Shown here in pieces: positions 56,641 to 63,652 of a stretch of DNA of 64,000 nt (position 1 is the first letter of the stretch; the number at the start of each line of letters is the position of its first letter). The stretch covers positions 1 to 64,000 of the forward strand of contig NZ_JAETXJ010000002.1 of the NCBI RefSeq assembly GCF_022508225.1. The letters run 5' to 3'. The notes under the pieces are model-generated. The model had not been told where the DNA came from, ran no database searches, and was given only the letters and a program-made list of their open reading frames with translations. Origin of the DNA: Desulfovibrio sp. UIB00. Lineage in GTDB: Bacteria > Desulfobacterota > Desulfovibrionia > Desulfovibrionales > Desulfovibrionaceae. A program made the position numbers and the translations under genes.

Positions 56641-57429
56641 TCAGCTTTTTGCTGCGCGGTAACCGTGCGAAAAGTCGGCGGCATACAGGCGTGAGGGCGC
56701 GCCCTCGCGGCTTTCTGCGGGCAGCACAAGAAAAACTGTCTGTCGGGTGAGGTTGTGGCGGGTTATGCACTGGGCCAGCTCGCCCAGCGTTGTCCAGTGC
56801 AGCTGCTCCTCGGGCCAACTGACCATATGGGCGCAAAAAACCTGGGTTTCTGACGGCAGGCTGCGCAAGAGCTCGTCCTGAAGGGCCTGAGCCGACGCTG
56901 CGGAAAGATAGACGGCCATGGAGGCCCCATGCTGGGCCAGCAGGTGAAGATGCTCACGCGCCGGCACCGGGGTACGGCCCTCAAGGCGGCTGATAATGAG
57001 GCTCTGGGTTACTTCCGGCACGGTAAAGGTAATGCCCGCCGCAGCCGCCGCAGCGCAGGCGGCGGTAACGCCCGGCACCACACGCCAGGGGATGCCGTCC
57101 GCATCCAGCAGGGCGGCCTGCTCGCGCAACGCACCGTACAGGGATGGGTCGCCCGTATGCACGCGGGCCACGGAGCGGCCCTCCAGCGCAGTTGCCCGCA
57201 CCAGCGCATGGCACTGCTCAAGGTTCAGCGGGGCGGAATCCACAACCATGGCGTTGGGCGCGGCGCAGGCCACTACCTCGCGCGGCACCAGCGAACCCGC
57301 ATAGAGCACAAGGGCGGCCTGCTCAATGGCATTGCGCCCCTTGATGGTCATGAGATCTGGATCGCCTGGCCCTGCGCCCACAAATGTAACGATGCCGGGC
57401 GTCATCCCGGTCTGTTGCGCGCTGTCCAT
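56641..57429 (-). CDS. cbiF: Precorrin-4/cobalt-precorrin-4 C11-methyltransferase
   Basis: SAM-dependent methyltransferase of corrin synthesis, 262 residues. The tetrapyrrole methylase motifs are clear: VTFVGAGPGDPDLMTIKGRN, VLYAGSLVPREVV, VARVHTGDPSLYGALREQ and VVPGVTAACAAAAAAGI. Most conserved positions agree with CbiF/CobM rather than the other methylases. It starts three bases after the cbiET stop and is the last gene of the operon. CobM would be the name in an oxygen-dependent organism; the presence of cbiD points to the anaerobic type. Confidence 0.93.
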   Translation of the reverse strand: MDSAQQTGMTPGIVTFVGAGPGDPDLMTIKGRNAIEQAALVLYAGSLVPREVVACAAPNAMVVDSAPLNLEQCHALVRATALEGRSVARVHTGDPSLYGALREQAALLDADGIPWRVVPGVTAACAAAAAAGITFTVPEVTQSLIISRLEGRTPVPAREHLHLLAQHGASMAVYLSAASAQALQDELLRSLPSETQVFCAHMVSWPEEQLHWTTLGELAQCITRHNLTRQTVFLVLPAESREGAPSRLYAADFSHGYRAAKS

Positions 57430-57432
57430 GCG

Positions 57433-59394
57433 CTACCTGCCTTCGGGCTGTGCGCCGGACTGAATGGGAGCAGGCGCGGGTTTTTGGGCGGCAAGCAAAA
57501 ATACGGGGTTCATGGCCGCCAAATGAACATCACCGCCAAGGCTCTTGCCTTCAGCTGCGCTGATTTGCAGAATTTCCACAGGCCAGCCCATGTCTTCAAA
57601 AAAGCGACGGCACAGGCTGAAACTGTCCAGAAGCACGCAACTGACCACCACGCGGCCCCCCACGGGCAAACGCAGGCATACATGCCCCAAGATGTCATCC
57701 CCGTCATCGCCGGAAAGGCCGCCGCCGATGAACACTCGCTGCGGATCAGGCAGGCCGGGCAAGCATTCGGGGGCTTGCCCGAGGCGTACTTCCACATTGG
57801 CCGCACCAAAGCGGCGGCGGTTTTCCTGAATGCCCATGGCGCGCCCGGCAGAGCGTTCCACCGCGATCACACGCCCCTCGTGCGCCAGCACGGAAGCTTC
57901 AAGGGCCACCGCACCCGAGCCGGAACCGAGATCCCACACCACGTGCCCGGCTTCAATGCGCAGCAGCGCCAGTGCGGCAGCGCGGACGGGCTTTTTGCTG
58001 ATGAGCCCTCGGTCAACCGCGAGCTGGTCGGCGTCAAGCCCAAGGTGCGGGCGGCGGGCCGGAGCCATGGGTATCAGCACCATTGTGCAGGCCGGGCCAA
58101 ATTCGCGCCCGGCGGCATCGGCCATGCTCAAATGGCTGACGCATTCATCGGCTGCGCCCATGCGCTCAAAAATATGGGCATCAAACCAGTCCACCCCACG
58201 GTCAAGCAGATGGCGGGCGAGTACATCGGGCGACATGCGCGCATCAGTAAGGATGCAGAGCGGCGCATTCTTGCCGCAGGCCACGTTGAGGGGGCGCAAA
58301 TCATCGCGTCCGTGCAGGGAGAGGCAGATAACCTTGTGCCACGGCAGGGAAAGGCGCGCGCAAGCCTGCTGCAGAGAACTGACAGCGGGCAGCAGGCGCA
58401 CGGCATCTGCCCCCATGCGGCGTACCAGGGTCGCGCCAATGCCAAACAGCAGGGGGTCGCCGTCTGCCAGCACAAGCACACGCTCCCCTGCGGCCCGCAA
58501 CTGGCTGAGGCGGGTGAGCAAAGGCTCCAGAGGCGTGGTCAGGGGCAGTAGGCGCGCCTTGAGGGCGGGTCCTGCTGCGGGAGAGTCCTCCTGATCGCCT
58601 GCGGGCTGGTTTTCTGTTGAATTCCCGTCTGCGTCACGGGTTGCGTCCCCAGTTGCTCCGTTGCTGGAGTCCAGACTGCTGCCGGAAAATTCCTCCAGCA
58701 GCATGCGCCCGGCGCAGATCACATCGGCTTGCTCCGCCAGCTGGCGCTGGGCTTCAGCCAAACCTGCCAGGCCGCGCGGGCGTGCGCAGTCGAGGCCCAT
58801 GACCGTGATGGGTTCCGGCGCGACAGTCGTTGGTTCAAAAACAAAGAATGACTGCAACATTTCCGACATGGGCGGCCAGTCGTCCTGCTCTGACGTGCCC
58901 GCAACGGCAGGGCTGGCGGGCGCAGCGGCGGGGGGGGCAGGAGCGGCCTGTGTGATATTGGCGGCAAGTGTGGTTGCTGCTGTTGCAGCGGCTTCGGCTG
59001 GCAACTCTGCGGGCGTGGCAGGGGCTTCATCCGCGTTTGCGGGAGCGGAATCCATAAGGAGGGGTTCGTCCCTGCCTGATGCGTCCGCATGTGCCGTTTC
59101 GGTATCCGCATTGTCAGAGGAACACTGTGCTTTATCAGCGTTAATCGGCGCGTCACAGTGCGGAGTGGCGAGTTCTGCAAAGGCGCAGATATTGGGGGCA
59201 ACTACCGGGGCGTCATCAGCAGGAAACTCCGGCAATTCGGCAGCATGTTCATCTGGATGTTCGCCGGGAGTCTCCAGCGGGCCAGCGGCAAGGGCCTCGG
59301 CCTGAACGGCGTTGGTTGCGTCATCGTCCCGTGTCGGGGTGTCGGGCGTATGGGTTGGCACGGCAAAGCCGGGCAGTGAGACCTGTTGTTTCAT
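57433..59394 (-). CDS. cbiET: Fused CbiE/CbiT precorrin-6Y methyltransferase with long N-terminal extension
   Basis: Enzyme that methylates C5 and C15 and decarboxylates in corrin synthesis (CbiE plus CbiT, like CobL). The CbiE part starts at about residue 196 (PITVMGLDCARPRGLAGLAE) and the CbiT part at about 460, with the SAM motif DLGSGSGAVALE at 488-499. Two features are odd. Residues 1-195 are an Ala/Pro/Glu/Asp-rich, probably disordered extension. Residues about 237-278 are a second such insert inside CbiE. The start at 59394 overlaps the cbiD stop (ATGA), which supports it, though shorter starts at 176 or 199 are possible. Total 653 residues against about 400 usually. Confidence 0.9.
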   Translation of the reverse strand: MKQQVSLPGFAVPTHTPDTPTRDDDATNAVQAEALAAGPLETPGEHPDEHAAELPEFPADDAPVVAPNICAFAELATPHCDAPINADKAQCSSDNADTETAHADASGRDEPLLMDSAPANADEAPATPAELPAEAAATAATTLAANITQAAPAPPAAAPASPAVAGTSEQDDWPPMSEMLQSFFVFEPTTVAPEPITVMGLDCARPRGLAGLAEAQRQLAEQADVICAGRMLLEEFSGSSLDSSNGATGDATRDADGNSTENQPAGDQEDSPAAGPALKARLLPLTTPLEPLLTRLSQLRAAGERVLVLADGDPLLFGIGATLVRRMGADAVRLLPAVSSLQQACARLSLPWHKVICLSLHGRDDLRPLNVACGKNAPLCILTDARMSPDVLARHLLDRGVDWFDAHIFERMGAADECVSHLSMADAAGREFGPACTMVLIPMAPARRPHLGLDADQLAVDRGLISKKPVRAAALALLRIEAGHVVWDLGSGSGAVALEASVLAHEGRVIAVERSAGRAMGIQENRRRFGAANVEVRLGQAPECLPGLPDPQRVFIGGGLSGDDGDDILGHVCLRLPVGGRVVVSCVLLDSFSLCRRFFEDMGWPVEILQISAAEGKSLGGDVHLAAMNPVFLLAAQKPAPAPIQSGAQPEGR

Positions 59395-60710
59395 AACGCC
59401 AATAATTCCCTGCCGTCAGTGTGAAAAAGGTGCAAGCTCACGGGGCGTCCTGCAAAAAGTTGTGCTGTGCGCGCCGCCTGCTGCGCCACCCGTTTGATGG
59501 TCTCGGCCCCTGCGTTGTCTGCCAGCAGCAGTTCCAGTGCGTGAGCCGCAGTTACGCAGCGGGTGATGGCATCCGCGCAGGTAGCGCCAGCCTCGCTGGC
59601 AAGTCGTCCAAGGGCCTGCATGTCCAGCGTGGAATCCTTGGCATGAGTGTATGTATGCCCTTGGGCAAGTTTGACCAGTTTGCCAAAAAAACAGCCCCAG
59701 ATAATCCGCTCAAACGGCATGCTCCCCACAGCTTGCAGTGAGAATTGCGCAAAATCCGCCACCTGCACAAAGCACCGTTCCTGCAGGTCGGGGTAGCGCT
59801 CCATAAGCAGCCGTTCAGAGCGCCTTCCCGTGGTAAGACAAGCACATTGGCAGCCTGTGGCGCGGGCCACGGCAAGCCCCTGCTCAATTGTGGCCTTCCA
59901 CGCATCATGGCTGAACGGACGCACCGTGCCCTGGGTTCCCAATATGGAAATGCCGCCTTCAATGCCCAATCTGGGATTGAAGGTCTGGTGCGCCAGCCGC
60001 GCGCCATCAGGTACGCTGACAAATACCGTCAGCCGGGTGCGGTTTCGAAGGGCTGCGGCGTACTCCTGCTCCTGGGCTTGCAGCGCAAAGGTTATCTGCT
60101 GACGCGGCACCGGGTTGACAGCAGCCTGACCAATGGGGACGGGCAGACCGGGCAGGGTGACTCGCCCCACCCCCGGCCCTCCCTTTATAATGATGTGGTC
60201 GGGGTATGCAACTGCTGTGTCGGGGGATGTCCCCACGGCATCATGGGAGGGCGTATGCCATGCTGCATCCTCGAACTGGTTGGCTGGGCGAGGTATGGTG
60301 GGCAGCGCGCTTTCCACCACCGTGGCTGTAATGCGCGCGCCTGAGGTGGCGTCAGGGTCATCGCCGCCGTCCTTGATTATGCTGGCGTGGGCAATGGCAA
60401 TGATATCCGGTGGCGGCGGATCGGCCAGCCCGCTTGCGGCGTTGGCTTCGGCAGCGGACCATACCGCACCCAGTTCCGGCGCAGGCCCTGCGGCGCAGCT
60501 TTCAATATTCAGGCGCAGCCAGCCCCGAGGCTCAGGCAGACAGTCAGCGTTTTTGCACGGATCAAGTCTGCCCTGACCAGCCCCAAAAGGGGGCAGGGGC
60601 ACCCGGATTGCATCCGGGGCTGTGCCCGTGCGCAACAGGTGCAGTGCGGCCAGTGCTGCACCCGTGGCGGCGCTGCCTGTAGTGAACCCTTCCCGAAGCT
60701 TTGCAGCCAT
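59391..60710 (-). CDS. cbiD: Cobalt-precorrin-5B C1-methyltransferase CbiD
   Basis: Enzyme of the anaerobic cobalamin branch, 439 residues. The N-terminal block reads LREGFTTGSAATGAALAALH; later blocks are IIIKGGPGVGRVTLPGLPVP and GEGGIS-like IEGGISILGTQGTVRPFS. The protein is longer than the usual 360-380 because of an insert (about residues 115-165) rich in Ala, Pro and Asp. The stop overlaps the start of cbiET, and the gene begins three bases after the racemase-like gene. Presence of cbiD marks the early-cobalt pathway. Confidence 0.93.
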   Translation of the reverse strand: MAAKLREGFTTGSAATGAALAALHLLRTGTAPDAIRVPLPPFGAGQGRLDPCKNADCLPEPRGWLRLNIESCAAGPAPELGAVWSAAEANAASGLADPPPPDIIAIAHASIIKDGGDDPDATSGARITATVVESALPTIPRPANQFEDAAWHTPSHDAVGTSPDTAVAYPDHIIIKGGPGVGRVTLPGLPVPIGQAAVNPVPRQQITFALQAQEQEYAAALRNRTRLTVFVSVPDGARLAHQTFNPRLGIEGGISILGTQGTVRPFSHDAWKATIEQGLAVARATGCQCACLTTGRRSERLLMERYPDLQERCFVQVADFAQFSLQAVGSMPFERIIWGCFFGKLVKLAQGHTYTHAKDSTLDMQALGRLASEAGATCADAITRCVTAAHALELLLADNAGAETIKRVAQQAARTAQLFAGRPVSLHLFHTDGRELLAL

Positions 60711-60713
60711 GCG

Positions 60714-61676
60714 TCAGCTCAAAGTGGGGGACAAACCAGATGTCAGGCTGGATGCCATGCCGGGAGCCGGATTTGAGGCCAACCCGGGGCGGGCGGCTGG
60801 ATCAGACAGCCAGACCTTGCCACGGGCCACAAGCGACACCGGGCCGTCTATGCCAGCCATATCAAGGCCGCCTTCGGCAAACAGCCGCACGTCCAGGGCC
60901 GAGCCGCCGGGCTGCATAATGGAAAAAGATCGGCGCGTGCCTGCGCGCGCAAGGCACAGGGCCAGTGCCAGTGCCCCGGAACCGCAGGCATTTTCAAGAA
61001 ATGTTGTTCCGGCGTCGCGCACATGCACAAGGGGCAACATGTCCAGCAGACCCTGGCATTCCCGCCACCAGATGACACCTGCGGCAGGTTCGGCCTCAAG
61101 GCCGTGCTGCTGGCGTAGTTGGGCAGCCACGGCATGGCAGTCATCCGGCAGGGGGTGTGTTGCCCCGCCAAGCAGCAGATGGCAGATGCCAGGCAGGCGC
61201 ACCAGATGCGCGCCTTTTTCTATAGTAGTAATGGAATATTCAGGGAGGCGCAGCAGAGCCTCCACCTGCCAGAGCGGGGCAGAGCCTCGGGTGCGCAGGC
61301 GTACAGGAGTCTGCCAGCCGGAAACCTGGATTTCATCAAAACGGACAGGGTGTTCTGCGGGTGCAGCAGCTTCGTTTCTTTGTTCACTGCGAGGGGCGAT
61401 TCCATCCAGCACACCCTGTTCCGGGCCTGAGTATTGGGCAGTGTATGCCAGCAAGGCCCCCACGGCGCGGCTGGCATTGACGCAAAATTCACCGCCCGCC
61501 ATACGCAGTTTGCGCTGGGGCAGGTTCACAAATCCCGCCTGTTCGCCCCCAAGCATGGAAGAATCCAGCGCCAAAGACGCCAGACGAGCCTGTTCTGCCG
61601 GGCGCTGACCAGCGTCGGGAAAAAGCAGGGTGGTGTTGCCCCCGGGGCTCCATTTGGAAAAAGTCAGTGCAGGCAT
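60714..61676 (-). CDS. CntK-like racemase of the DapF fold
   Basis: Protein of 320 residues with the diaminopimelate epimerase (DapF) fold. It begins with FSKWSPGGNTTLLF, then GGEFCVNASRA (Cys65) and FLENACGSGALALAL (Cys231). These are the two catalytic cysteines of cofactor-independent racemases. Key blocks match CntK, the histidine racemase of staphylopine synthesis (FSKYNPSGN, GNEFCGN, ENSCGSG, QPGGS), rather than true DapF. It heads the cobalamin operon, three bases before cbiD. No opine-metallophore genes (cntL or cntM type) are in the window. The substrate is unknown; histidine or another amino acid is a guess. Confidence 0.7.
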   Translation of the reverse strand: MPALTFSKWSPGGNTTLLFPDAGQRPAEQARLASLALDSSMLGGEQAGFVNLPQRKLRMAGGEFCVNASRAVGALLAYTAQYSGPEQGVLDGIAPRSEQRNEAAAPAEHPVRFDEIQVSGWQTPVRLRTRGSAPLWQVEALLRLPEYSITTIEKGAHLVRLPGICHLLLGGATHPLPDDCHAVAAQLRQQHGLEAEPAAGVIWWRECQGLLDMLPLVHVRDAGTTFLENACGSGALALALCLARAGTRRSFSIMQPGGSALDVRLFAEGGLDMAGIDGPVSLVARGKVWLSDPAARPGLASNPAPGMASSLTSGLSPTLS

Positions 61677-61991
61677 GGAAAATCCTTGGTTCTTGACAAA
61701 GTATGCCTCAGGCCCGGCGGGCTGTCCAGCGCTGGCGGCAGAGCGGGGTCAGCCGCCGGATTTTTGCTGCCAAAGGGAAATAATCGGATGTGCGTTGCAC
61801 TTGGACTGTGATGAAAAAGCGAAAGAGTGTTTCCTATTTACAACTTGCGGTTTTTCCTAAACGCGGGTATGTGAAAGGCAGTTGCCGTCTCCAAGGCCTA
61901 TGGCTGTGAGTGAGCCGGTAACGTGGCGGGCACACCGCGATTTACTGTTGTTGACGGTAATCGACGACACTAACAACGTTTGGGAGGCAGT
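61677..61991. other. Divergent region between the cobalamin operon and the VWA-OmpA gene
   Basis: 315 bases between divergent starts. On the minus strand a GC-rich segment (about 61705-61765) contains AGCCCGCCGGGCC, which resembles part of a B12 box but lacks the rest of a cobalamin riboswitch. On the plus strand GGGAGGC lies just before 61992. No gene is supported. Confidence 0.45.
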
Positions 61992-62987
61992 ATGAAATCG
62001 TTTCGTCTTCTTGCTCTTGCGGCCGCTCTTGTTCTGAGCTACGCCGTGGCCGCTGCGGCCGCTCCGGCTTGTAACAAGAAAATTGAGAGCTTCGACTTCG
62101 TAGTGGACTATTCTGGTTCCATGATGATGAAGAACGACAAGCTGAAGCAGGACAAGATTGTTGTGGCCAAAAATGTGCTTACGCGCATCAATGCCGCTAT
62201 CCCCGCTCTGAGCTACAATGGTGGCTTGCACACCCTTTCGCCCAACGGCGCCATCATTGCCCAGGGTCCTTGGGATCGCGCCGCCATGGCCGCTGGCCTC
62301 AAGAAGCTGAGCAGCAACTTTGATATTTTTGGCCGCATGACCAGCATGGGCAACGGCCTGCAGGCGTATGAACCCTTCATCTCCAGCATGAAGCGCGACG
62401 CCGCCCTGATCCTCGTGACCGACGGCGACAACAACCGTGGTACCGACCTCGTGCAGGTTGTGAGCCAGATGTACGCCAGCCAGCGTAACCTGGTTGTGCA
62501 TGTGATCTCCCTGGCCGACACCCCCAACGGTGAAGCCACCATCAAAAAGATTGGCGCCCTGAACTCCAACGCCGTTGTGGTGCGTGGTGAAGAACTGGCT
62601 ACCAGCGATGCCGCTGTTGAACGCTTTGTGCTTTCCGTGTTCTGCAAGGACGAAGACGTCATCGTGCTGCGCGGCGTGCACTTCGCTTTCAATTCCTATG
62701 CTCTTGACGGCAAGGCCATGGGCATCCTGAACGAAGCCGCCACCCTGATCAAGAACAACCCCAACAAGCGCGTTGTTCTCTCCGGCTGGACCGACTTTGT
62801 GGGTTCCGATGCTTACAACATGAAGCTTTCGCAGGAACGCGCCAGCTCCGTGAAGAACTACCTCGTGAAGCAGGGCATCCCCTCCAGCCGCATGACAGCC
62901 ATTGGCCGCGGCAAGTCCTTCAAGTATGACAACAAGACCGACGAAGGTCGCGCCATGAATCGGCGCACCGAAGTGTCCTTCGAGTAA
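61992..62987 (+). CDS. VWA-domain OmpA-like outer-membrane protein
   Basis: Exported protein of 331 residues with two domains. After the signal peptide comes a von Willebrand A domain with the metal-binding start FVVDYSGSM (residues 36-44) and the late motif LVTDGDNN. The C-terminal OmpA-like peptidoglycan-binding domain follows (VHFAFNSYALDGKAMGILNE, SGWTDFVGSDAYNMKLSQER, IGRGKSFKYDNKTDEGRAMN). It should anchor to the cell wall and bind a protein or ligand through the VWA part. Two cysteines (27 and 218) may link the domains. GGGAGGC lies before the ATG. A terminator follows. Confidence 0.88.
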   Translation: MKSFRLLALAAALVLSYAVAAAAAPACNKKIESFDFVVDYSGSMMMKNDKLKQDKIVVAKNVLTRINAAIPALSYNGGLHTLSPNGAIIAQGPWDRAAMAAGLKKLSSNFDIFGRMTSMGNGLQAYEPFISSMKRDAALILVTDGDNNRGTDLVQVVSQMYASQRNLVVHVISLADTPNGEATIKKIGALNSNAVVVRGEELATSDAAVERFVLSVFCKDEDVIVLRGVHFAFNSYALDGKAMGILNEAATLIKNNPNKRVVLSGWTDFVGSDAYNMKLSQERASSVKNYLVKQGIPSSRMTAIGRGKSFKYDNKTDEGRAMNRRTEVSFE

Positions 62988-63070: not shown

Positions 63071-63652
63071 ATGCGTAAGATTCTGGCACTCATTCTCACG
63101 TTGGGGTTGACCACTGGCGGTTGCGCCTGGTTTGGCGGCTCTTCTTCCACTGATGAAGAAATAAAGCCCGCTCAGCCGCAGGAACAGACTGCAGCCCCCG
63201 AACCGGCCCCGGCCCCTGTGGCTCCTGCCAAGGACGCCAAGGGCAAGAAGGGTAAAACCAAGGCCGAAAAACCGGCTGAAGTTAAGCCCGTTGCCGCTAA
63301 AAAAGGCGCGAAGACCGAAGCTCAGGTCGCCGCCGAGCTCACCATGGTGGGCAACAGACTGGCTGCCCAGGCTGCCCGCACGGTGATGCCTTCCAAGTCT
63401 TCCAGGGAAGTGCGCCAGGACGGCAAGGATTACGTGGGGACCTACATTGATGTGGACTCTTCCAACGTAACCACTGAATTGCGCCCCAGCCCCACTGGTC
63501 AGTACGTCGGCTTTATCAGGTATCAGGAAAGGGTGATGGATTGCCGTGGCAAGACTCGCCAGGAAGCTATGTCTACTGCTTCTTGCGAACAGGTCAAGGC
63601 CCGCAACATCAACGAGCTGATCCGTTTTGACGGTTCGACCTGGCAGTATTAG
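63071..63652 (+). CDS. Lipoprotein with Ala/Pro/Lys-rich linker
   Basis: 193-residue lipoprotein: signal peptide and lipobox TGGC (Cys18). Residues 30-80 are an Ala/Pro/Lys/Glu-rich linker. A compact C-terminal domain (about 95-193) has TYIDVDSSNVTTELRPSPTG and FIRYQERVMDCRG, with two cysteines that could form a disulfide. I recognise no family. The linker and the OmpA neighbour suggest an outer-membrane or cell-wall location. The start is good, but the terminator just upstream implies weak or separate expression. Confidence 0.75.
   Translation: MRKILALILTLGLTTGGCAWFGGSSSTDEEIKPAQPQEQTAAPEPAPAPVAPAKDAKGKKGKTKAEKPAEVKPVAAKKGAKTEAQVAAELTMVGNRLAAQAARTVMPSKSSREVRQDGKDYVGTYIDVDSSNVTTELRPSPTGQYVGFIRYQERVMDCRGKTRQEAMSTASCEQVKARNINELIRFDGSTWQY

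What the first reader, a model, noticed from the sequence alone, without database searches (positions are those of the whole stretch)
60714..61676. CntK-like racemase heads a cobalamin operon
The first gene of the cbiD-cbiET-cbiF operon encodes a DapF-fold protein whose motifs agree with the staphylopine histidine racemase CntK: two catalytic cysteines at 65 and 231, GEFCVN, NACGSG and QPGGS. No known step of B12 synthesis needs a racemase. A spacing of three bases to cbiD implies a shared transcript. One reading is that the product supplies a D-amino acid for a cobalt- or nickel-binding opine, so metal capture is tied to corrin synthesis. Another is that it makes an unusual lower-ligand or side-chain precursor. 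No partner opine genes are in the window, so both remain guesses.
Basis: partly seen in the sequence, partly recalled or inferred. Interest (0 to 1): 0.65.

Follow-up and report, generated by a model that had tools for sequence, protein, structure and literature searches.

The report
Orphan histidine racemase beside vitamin-B12 genes
A Desulfovibrio gene sitting in front of vitamin-B12 genes most likely makes the mirror-image form of the amino acid histidine, but its place there looks like inherited gene order rather than a role in making B12.

Summary
The gene is real: 60714-61676 (-), 320 aa, with Cys65, Cys231 and the motifs named; its stop lies three bases before cbiD. It belongs to the HisR/CntK histidine-racemase branch of the DapF fold: a family profile finds HisR (4e-47) and CntK (1.5e-36) in the PDB and no DapF, the model matches HisR best, and the tree separates it from DapF. 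Both cysteines and the three glutamates proposed for histidine binding are conserved; one proposed contact, HisR Gly68, is Val66 here.

The B12 reading is not supported. 52 of 149 Desulfovibrionaceae genomes carry the gene; 18 of these lack a CbiD hit, nine of them at least 95% complete. Direct adjacency to cbiD was seen only in Desulfovibrio; other genera show racemase-C7-cbiD or racemase-C7-spacer-cbiD, so the three-base gap fits loss of C7 from an older order. Selection is about as strong away from cbiD. One assembly has a broken racemase remnant right before cbiD. No CntL was found; CntM too was not found, but its control was silent.

Best reading: an orphan histidine racemase supplying D-histidine for an unknown use, as in Fusobacterium. 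Substrate untested.

The parts
60714..61676 (-). HisR/CntK-type racemase, 320 aa (C65, C231; E45, E63, E228); residues after about 295 are a low-confidence tail
59391..60710 (-). cbiD, three bases after the racemase stop
   Evidence: PF01888 2.9e-74, TIGR00312 1.9e-95
57433..59394 (-). cbiET fusion
   Evidence: TIGR02467 CbiE and TIGR02469 CbiT over cut-off
56641..57429 (-). cbiF (cobM)
   Evidence: TIGR01465 3.2e-85
61677..61979 (.). divergent intergenic region with one sigma-70-like site facing the racemase (61728-61700, -), no Rfam match
61980..62987 (+). divergent gene with OmpA domain and weak vWA match; neighbour of the racemase in 27 of 30 visible named loci
63071..63652 (+). lipoprotein-like gene following the OmpA-domain gene, found in many of the same loci

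Best explanation
It is an orphan cofactor-independent histidine racemase of the HisR/CntK type. Two cysteines (C65, C231) on either side of the alpha-carbon take and give the proton and so interconvert L- and D-histidine; Glu45, Glu63 and Glu228 are candidate contacts for the imidazole and amino group. The D-histidine serves a use not yet known, which is neither the known opine route nor corrin synthesis. The gene came to stand in front of cbiD because an older order, racemase - C7 - spacer - cbiD - cbiET - cbiF, was shortened in Desulfovibrio; the likely shared transcript is a by-product. Shown here: family membership by sequence and fold, residue conservation, purifying selection, the gene orders, and that the racemase and cbiD occur without each other. 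Inferred: histidine as substrate, the direction of the deletion, co-transcription, and that the pairing has no function.
For: A profile of 39 relatives hits HisR (4e-47) and CntK (1.5e-36) among PDB sequences, and else only O-ureidoserine racemase at 0.067. NCBIfam HisR 1.4e-21, CntK 1.8e-14, DapF 0.028. AlphaFold pLDDT 89.4, pTM 0.86; Foldseek HisR 6.4e-23, CntK 1.1e-19, O-ureidoserine racemase 2.8e-13, DapF 1.1e-12; VIA Z 29.0 HisR, 26.2 CntK, 26.0 DapF. Tree: 85 relatives, HisR and CntK on one side of a branch with SH-aLRT 100 from 10 DapF. E45, Q46, F64, S119, G120, P215, E228, Q255, P256 go with HisR and CntK and not with DapF. Of the eight HisR residues named as contacts in PMC11602996 or matched there to CntK Glu46 (sections 8 and 11), six are identical here (Asn18, Glu49, Glu65, Asn69, Glu206, Ser211). 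Own genome has a separate dapF and hisD. Gene orders; two C7 copies elsewhere in the own genome. Racemase without CbiD in 18 of 52 genomes. dN/dS 0.17-0.26 in three pairs away from cbiD, 0.14-0.25 beside it.
Against: No biochemical test. Scores lie far below the NCBIfam equivalog cut-offs (77 of 400, 54 of 300). Two proposed carboxylate contacts differ from HisR: Gly68 is Val66 here (V, L or A in 84 of 99 rows) and Ala210 is Gly232 (Gly also in CntK), so the substrate could differ. Glu63 is shared with 9 of 10 readable DapF rows. CntK and DapF tie in VIA Z. The tree is a quick one with flagged long branches. Within Desulfovibrio cbiD is adjacent in 22 of 34 visible loci, and the racemase lies upstream of cbiD in three genera, which a functional link would also give. 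Nine of the 18 racemase genomes without CbiD are under 95% complete.
Confidence: 0.62

Rival explanations
1. It makes D-histidine for a cobalt- or nickel-binding molecule, so that metal capture is switched on together with corrin synthesis.
For: CntK does this for staphylopine (PMC7438024, passages); the gene heads a cbi operon; the racemase lies upstream of cbiD in three genera.
Against: No NAS/CntL over cut-off in 149 family genomes; no CntM hit, though that control was silent. 18 of 52 racemase genomes have no CbiD hit. No Rfam riboswitch in the window. A non-opine ligand such as free D-His is not excluded.
Confidence: 0.08
2. It makes a precursor for an unusual lower ligand or side chain of the corrinoid.
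For: Spacing of three bases to cbiD.
Against: Racemase without CbiD in 18 of 52 genomes and CbiD without racemase in 81 of 149; broken racemase before cbiD in L056; no known corrinoid step needs a racemase (established knowledge).
Confidence: 0.03
3. It is a racemase or epimerase of the same fold with a substrate other than histidine, because the residue after the first cysteine has changed.
For: Val66 for HisR Gly68, V, L or A in 84 of 99 rows; low scores against the equivalog models.
Against: E45, E63, E228 and the HisR/CntK-type signature positions are kept; HisR is the best match by profile and fold.
Confidence: 0.2
4. It makes a D-amino acid for the cell wall or envelope and works with the divergent OmpA-domain gene.
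For: The OmpA-domain gene is the divergent neighbour in 27 of 30 visible named loci, and stays in 10 loci where cbiD is not adjacent.
Against: That neighbour is found in 12 of 49 visible loci of the second set and is missing in genus g39 and most other genera.
Confidence: 0.05
5. It is a second diaminopimelate or lanthionine epimerase.
For: DapF fold; two racemase-bearing genomes (G017, G019) gave no DapF hit.
Against: Own genome has a separate dapF; tree and signature positions set it apart from DapF; no PF01678 match.
Confidence: 0.02

Closest known systems
HisR, histidine racemase of Fusobacterium nucleatum (PDB 9cr1, 9cr6; NCBIfam NF052224)
   Same: Closest solved relative by profile, Foldseek and Z; both cysteines and six of eight named contacts kept; also without cntL and cntM (PMC11602996)
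   Different: About 28% identity over the aligned structure; Val66 for Gly68, Gly232 for Ala210; C-terminal tail; neighbours are cbi genes, not the folate-type genes reported for Fusobacterium
CntK, histidine racemase of the staphylopine pathway (PDB 6jis, 6jiw, 6l4l; NCBIfam NF033599)
   Same: Both cysteines, E45/E46 and E228/E208 equivalents, HisR/CntK signature positions
   Different: About 21% identity over the aligned structure; no CntL in the genome, no CntM hit; not in an opine cluster
DapF, diaminopimelate epimerase
   Same: Fold and two-cysteine chemistry
   Different: Not matched by PF01678, separated in the tree, signature positions differ; own genome has a separate dapF

Membership tests
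HisR/CntK histidine-racemase branch | two catalytic cysteines at HisR C67 and C209 | tested here: met
   C65 and C231; 98 of 99 and 99 of 99 rows
HisR/CntK histidine-racemase branch | glutamates proposed for histidine binding (HisR E49/CntK E46, E65, E206/E208) | tested here: met
   E45 98 of 99, E63 99 of 99, E228 99 of 99; E63 is also in 9 of 10 readable DapF rows
HisR/CntK histidine-racemase branch | grouping with HisR and CntK apart from DapF | tested here: met
   quick tree, SH-aLRT 100, long branches flagged
HisR/CntK histidine-racemase branch | racemisation of histidine | not testable with these tools
   needs an assay
NCBIfam equivalogs NF052224 (HisR) and NF033599 (CntK) | score over the curated cut-off | tested here: not met
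   77.4 of 400 and 53.9 of 300 bits
Staphylopine-type opine pathway | CntL (NAS) in the genome | tested here: not met
   PF03059: none in own genome, 0 of 149 over cut-off; control rings
Staphylopine-type opine pathway | CntM in the genome | tested here: inconclusive
   PF10100: 0 of 149, but no control genome rang
DapF | match to PF01678 or TIGR00652 over cut-off | tested here: not met
   no Pfam family; TIGR00652 13.9 of 114.65 bits
Cobalamin-pathway gene | co-occurrence and linkage with cbi genes across relatives | tested here: not met
   149 genomes: 34 both, 18 racemase only, 81 CbiD only, 16 neither; direct adjacency only in the window's genus
PhzF | placement in a tree with PhzF | not tested
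   only the fold was compared: VIA Z 23.5 for PhzF, 29.0 for HisR

The most novel reading that the evidence does not exclude
Desulfovibrionaceae, Clostridia and Fusobacteria keep an opine-free histidine racemase because D-histidine itself, or a small product of it, is a metabolite with its own job, for example a ligand for cobalt or nickel that protein synthesis cannot consume, and the Desulfovibrio branch has put its synthesis under the same promoter as corrin-ring methylation.
Probability: 0.1. Interest if true: 0.7.

Novelty: new member of a known kind. Interest (0 to 1): 0.36.

Why it matters
The 2024 HisR paper calls HisR only the second cofactor-independent histidine racemase identified and leaves its purpose open (PMC11602996, discussion). 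A conserved and selected set in sulfate reducers (52 of 149 family genomes) and relatives in Clostridia give further systems in which to find what D-histidine is for. It also shows how a three-base gap to a known operon can mislead: the direct pairing is local to one genus.

Tried and rejected
A B12 enzyme: rejected on co-occurrence, gene order and the broken copy in L056. A DapF duplicate: rejected on tree and residues. Rescue of histidine auxotrophy by D-His scavenging: unlikely, since HisD is found at E <= 0.001 in 48 of 52 racemase genomes. Plasmid carriage: no match in the plasmid collection. A riboswitch in front of the operon: no Rfam match over gathering score in the window. C7, the ~1,016-aa protein next to the racemase in other genera: one of two members had no Pfam hit and the other only sub-threshold ones, one faint NCBIfam hit to 3',5'-nucleoside bisphosphate phosphatase (0.0043, cut-off not reached), no PDB hit; its role stays unknown. 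In 7 of 16 Firmicutes loci (L042-L055, L057, L058) an M20 gene, ArgE/DapE-like in the two members scanned, is next to the racemase; this gave no clear substrate. The phylum sample matched 8 of 297 genomes, all of the window's genus. VIA's list does not exclude families it does not show.

Searches for print (open-licence PMC papers only): 'histidine racemase' with 'Desulfovibrio' 0 papers; 'D-histidine, racemase, bacteri, DapF' 1, the HisR paper; 'epimerase, cbiD, Desulfovibrio, cobalamin' 2, of which PMC545781 was read in passages and the other seen in the listing; 'racemase, cbiD, operon' 2 and 'Desulfovibrio, D-amino acid, racemase, peptidoglycan' 2, listing only. PMC11602996: abstract, passages, section 9 part 1, sections 8 and 11 in full. 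PMC7438024: passages.

The one row with Tyr for the first cysteine is by elimination L106. For the tree 85 of 99 rows under 88% identity were kept, and 3 of 13 DapF rows, read in a wrong frame, were dropped; the DapF columns still contain them. The five g39 loci were chosen because one search had placed cbiD on the same contig; the other three g39 racemase genomes (G124, G136, G145) had no CbiD hit. One search took 10 of the 12 named loci without adjacent cbiD (not L013, L035). The named set and the genome set overlap, so their counts are not to be added.

Full report
What is there. The ORF at 60714-61676 (-) codes for 320 aa and is followed after three bases by cbiD, then cbiET and cbiF. AAGGA stands six bases before the ATG. 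One promoter-like site faces the gene in the divergent region (61728-61700, 9 of 12 matches; shuffles average 0.1). Rfam finds nothing over gathering score in the window. A shared racemase-cbi transcript is plausible but not shown.

What family. Pfam gives no family. NCBIfam gives HisR 1.4e-21, CntK 1.8e-14 and DapF 0.028, all far below the curated cut-offs. A single-sequence PDB search finds HisR first (6.8e-16), then CntK (1.6e-10) and O-ureidoserine racemase (0.027). The profile of 39 relatives finds HisR at 4e-47 and CntK at 1.5e-36, nearly full length, and up to E 0.1 otherwise only O-ureidoserine racemase at 0.067. The AlphaFold model (mean pLDDT 89.4, pTM 0.86) matches HisR best by Foldseek (6.4e-23; CntK 1.1e-19; O-ureidoserine racemase 2.8e-13; DapF 1.1e-12) and by VIA (Z 29.0 HisR, 26.2 CntK, 26.0 DapF, 23.5 PhzF; CntK and DapF tie). 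In a quick maximum-likelihood tree, 85 relatives, HisR and CntK form one side and 10 DapF the other, SH-aLRT 100. The program flags long branches for CntK and HisR, the root within the racemase side is unsure, and PhzF was not included.

Active site. In 99 rows Cys65 is kept in 98, Cys231 in 99, Glu45 in 98, Glu63 and Glu228 in 99. These match HisR C67, C209, E49, E65, E206 (numbering matched by me on the alignment; contacts as proposed in PMC11602996, sections 8 and 11). Of the eight HisR residues named there as contacts or as the match of CntK Glu46, six are identical here: Asn18, Glu49, Glu65, Asn69, Glu206, Ser211. Gly68 is Val66 (V 67, L 15, G 15, A 2 of 99 rows) and Ala210 is Gly232, as in CntK. 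Glu63 is no proof of histidine, since 9 of 10 readable DapF rows carry Glu there; Glu45-Gln46, Phe64, Ser119-Gly120, Pro215, Glu228 and Gln255-Pro256 go with HisR and CntK and not with DapF.

Distribution. 52 of 149 sampled Desulfovibrionaceae genomes carry it. In a phylum sample 8 of 297 genomes match, all of the window's genus. Of the 56 loci, 40 are Desulfovibrionaceae (L004 is titled only Deltaproteobacteria) and 16 are Clostridia, Bacilli or other Firmicutes. The window's genome has a separate dapF and hisD.

Is it tied to B12? Among 149 family genomes racemase and CbiD occur together in 34, racemase alone in 18, CbiD alone in 81, neither in 16: no positive association (odds ratio 0.37, Fisher p 0.015, not corrected for kinship). 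Nine of the 18 are at least 95% complete: G006, G035, G065, G070, G103, G115, G127, G138, G147; in the other nine the lack may be a gap in the assembly. Only CbiD was sought, not the whole pathway. Of the 40 named Desulfovibrionaceae loci, 34 show at least 1.5 kb downstream; cbiD is within 200 bp in 22 and not in 12. Of 30 with at least 1.5 kb upstream, 27 have the divergent OmpA-domain gene. Of 24 with both sides in view, 11 have both neighbours, 10 only the OmpA-domain gene, 3 only cbiD. In the second, overlapping set, 52 loci from 51 other family genomes, 50 with downstream sequence, cbiD is adjacent in 7, all of the window's genus; C7 is within 400 bp in 13, from genera g4, g27, g36 and g39; the OmpA-domain gene is present in 12 of 49. 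One genome of the window's own genus, G126, has the racemase without adjacent cbiD. In 10 genomes chosen from those without adjacency, 7 have cbiD elsewhere.

How the pairing arose. Five genus-g39 loci, chosen because cbiD lay on the same contig, all read racemase - C7 - 3.6 to 3.8 kb - cbiD - cbiET - cbiF in one direction. L035 (the same locus as L102) reads racemase - C7 - cbiD - cbiET - cbiF. Desulfovibrio reads racemase - cbiD - cbiET - cbiF, and the window's genome has two C7 copies elsewhere. The simplest history is loss of the spacer and of C7 at this place; the direction is inferred. This old neighbourhood across three genera is also the best argument left for a functional link, which I keep open at low odds. 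In L056, a metagenome assembly, the racemase is a broken remnant directly before cbiD.

Selection. dN/dS against five relatives is 0.14-0.25 for the racemase and 0.16-0.22 for cbiD; in three pairs not adjacent to cbiD it is 0.17-0.26. Several dS values are near or above 1, so the ratios are rough. The gene is maintained for its own sake.

Metallophore reading. No NAS/CntL over cut-off in 149 genomes, with one sub-threshold hit in a genome without the racemase and a ringing control; no CntM hit, control silent. The known opine route (PMC7438024, passages) is therefore not supported. Free D-His or a new D-His product stays possible.

Verdict. A well-supported new branch of the HisR/CntK group, probably a histidine racemase, and an orphan as in Fusobacterium, where a knockout gives a small growth lag and the purpose is unclear (PMC11602996, abstract and discussion). 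The cobalamin link is most likely gene-order heritage. Interest is moderate because the use of D-His outside opines is an open question.

Noticed in passing
L035:8813-11863 (+); copies at G000:C5:128346-131300 and G000:C3:501369-504341: A ~1,016-aa protein family (C7) without a Pfam hit over cut-off or a PDB match, next to the racemase in genera g4, g27, g36 and g39 and in two copies in the window's genome.
   Followed up: partly
L056:8001-8310: Broken racemase remnant directly upstream of cbiD in a Desulfovibrio metagenome assembly.
   Followed up: partly
L042, L043, L045, L046, L049, L050, L053: In 7 of 16 Firmicutes loci an M20 gene (ArgE/DapE-like in the two scanned) is next to the racemase, a possible lead to the use of its product.
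   Followed up: partly
G017 and G019 (whole genomes): Two racemase-bearing genomes of 97 and 96% completeness gave no PF01678 (DapF) hit.
   Followed up: no
window 57433-59394 (-): The cbiET protein has a long N-terminal part rich in Ala, Pro and acidic residues and an insert rich in Ser, Asn and Gly; in many relatives the alignment begins only at about residue 130-200.
   Followed up: no
L012, L013, L024: cbiET follows the racemase directly and cbiD is not between them; two of the loci are D. piger, and D. piger ATCC 29098 (L012) has a cbiD elsewhere.
   Followed up: partly
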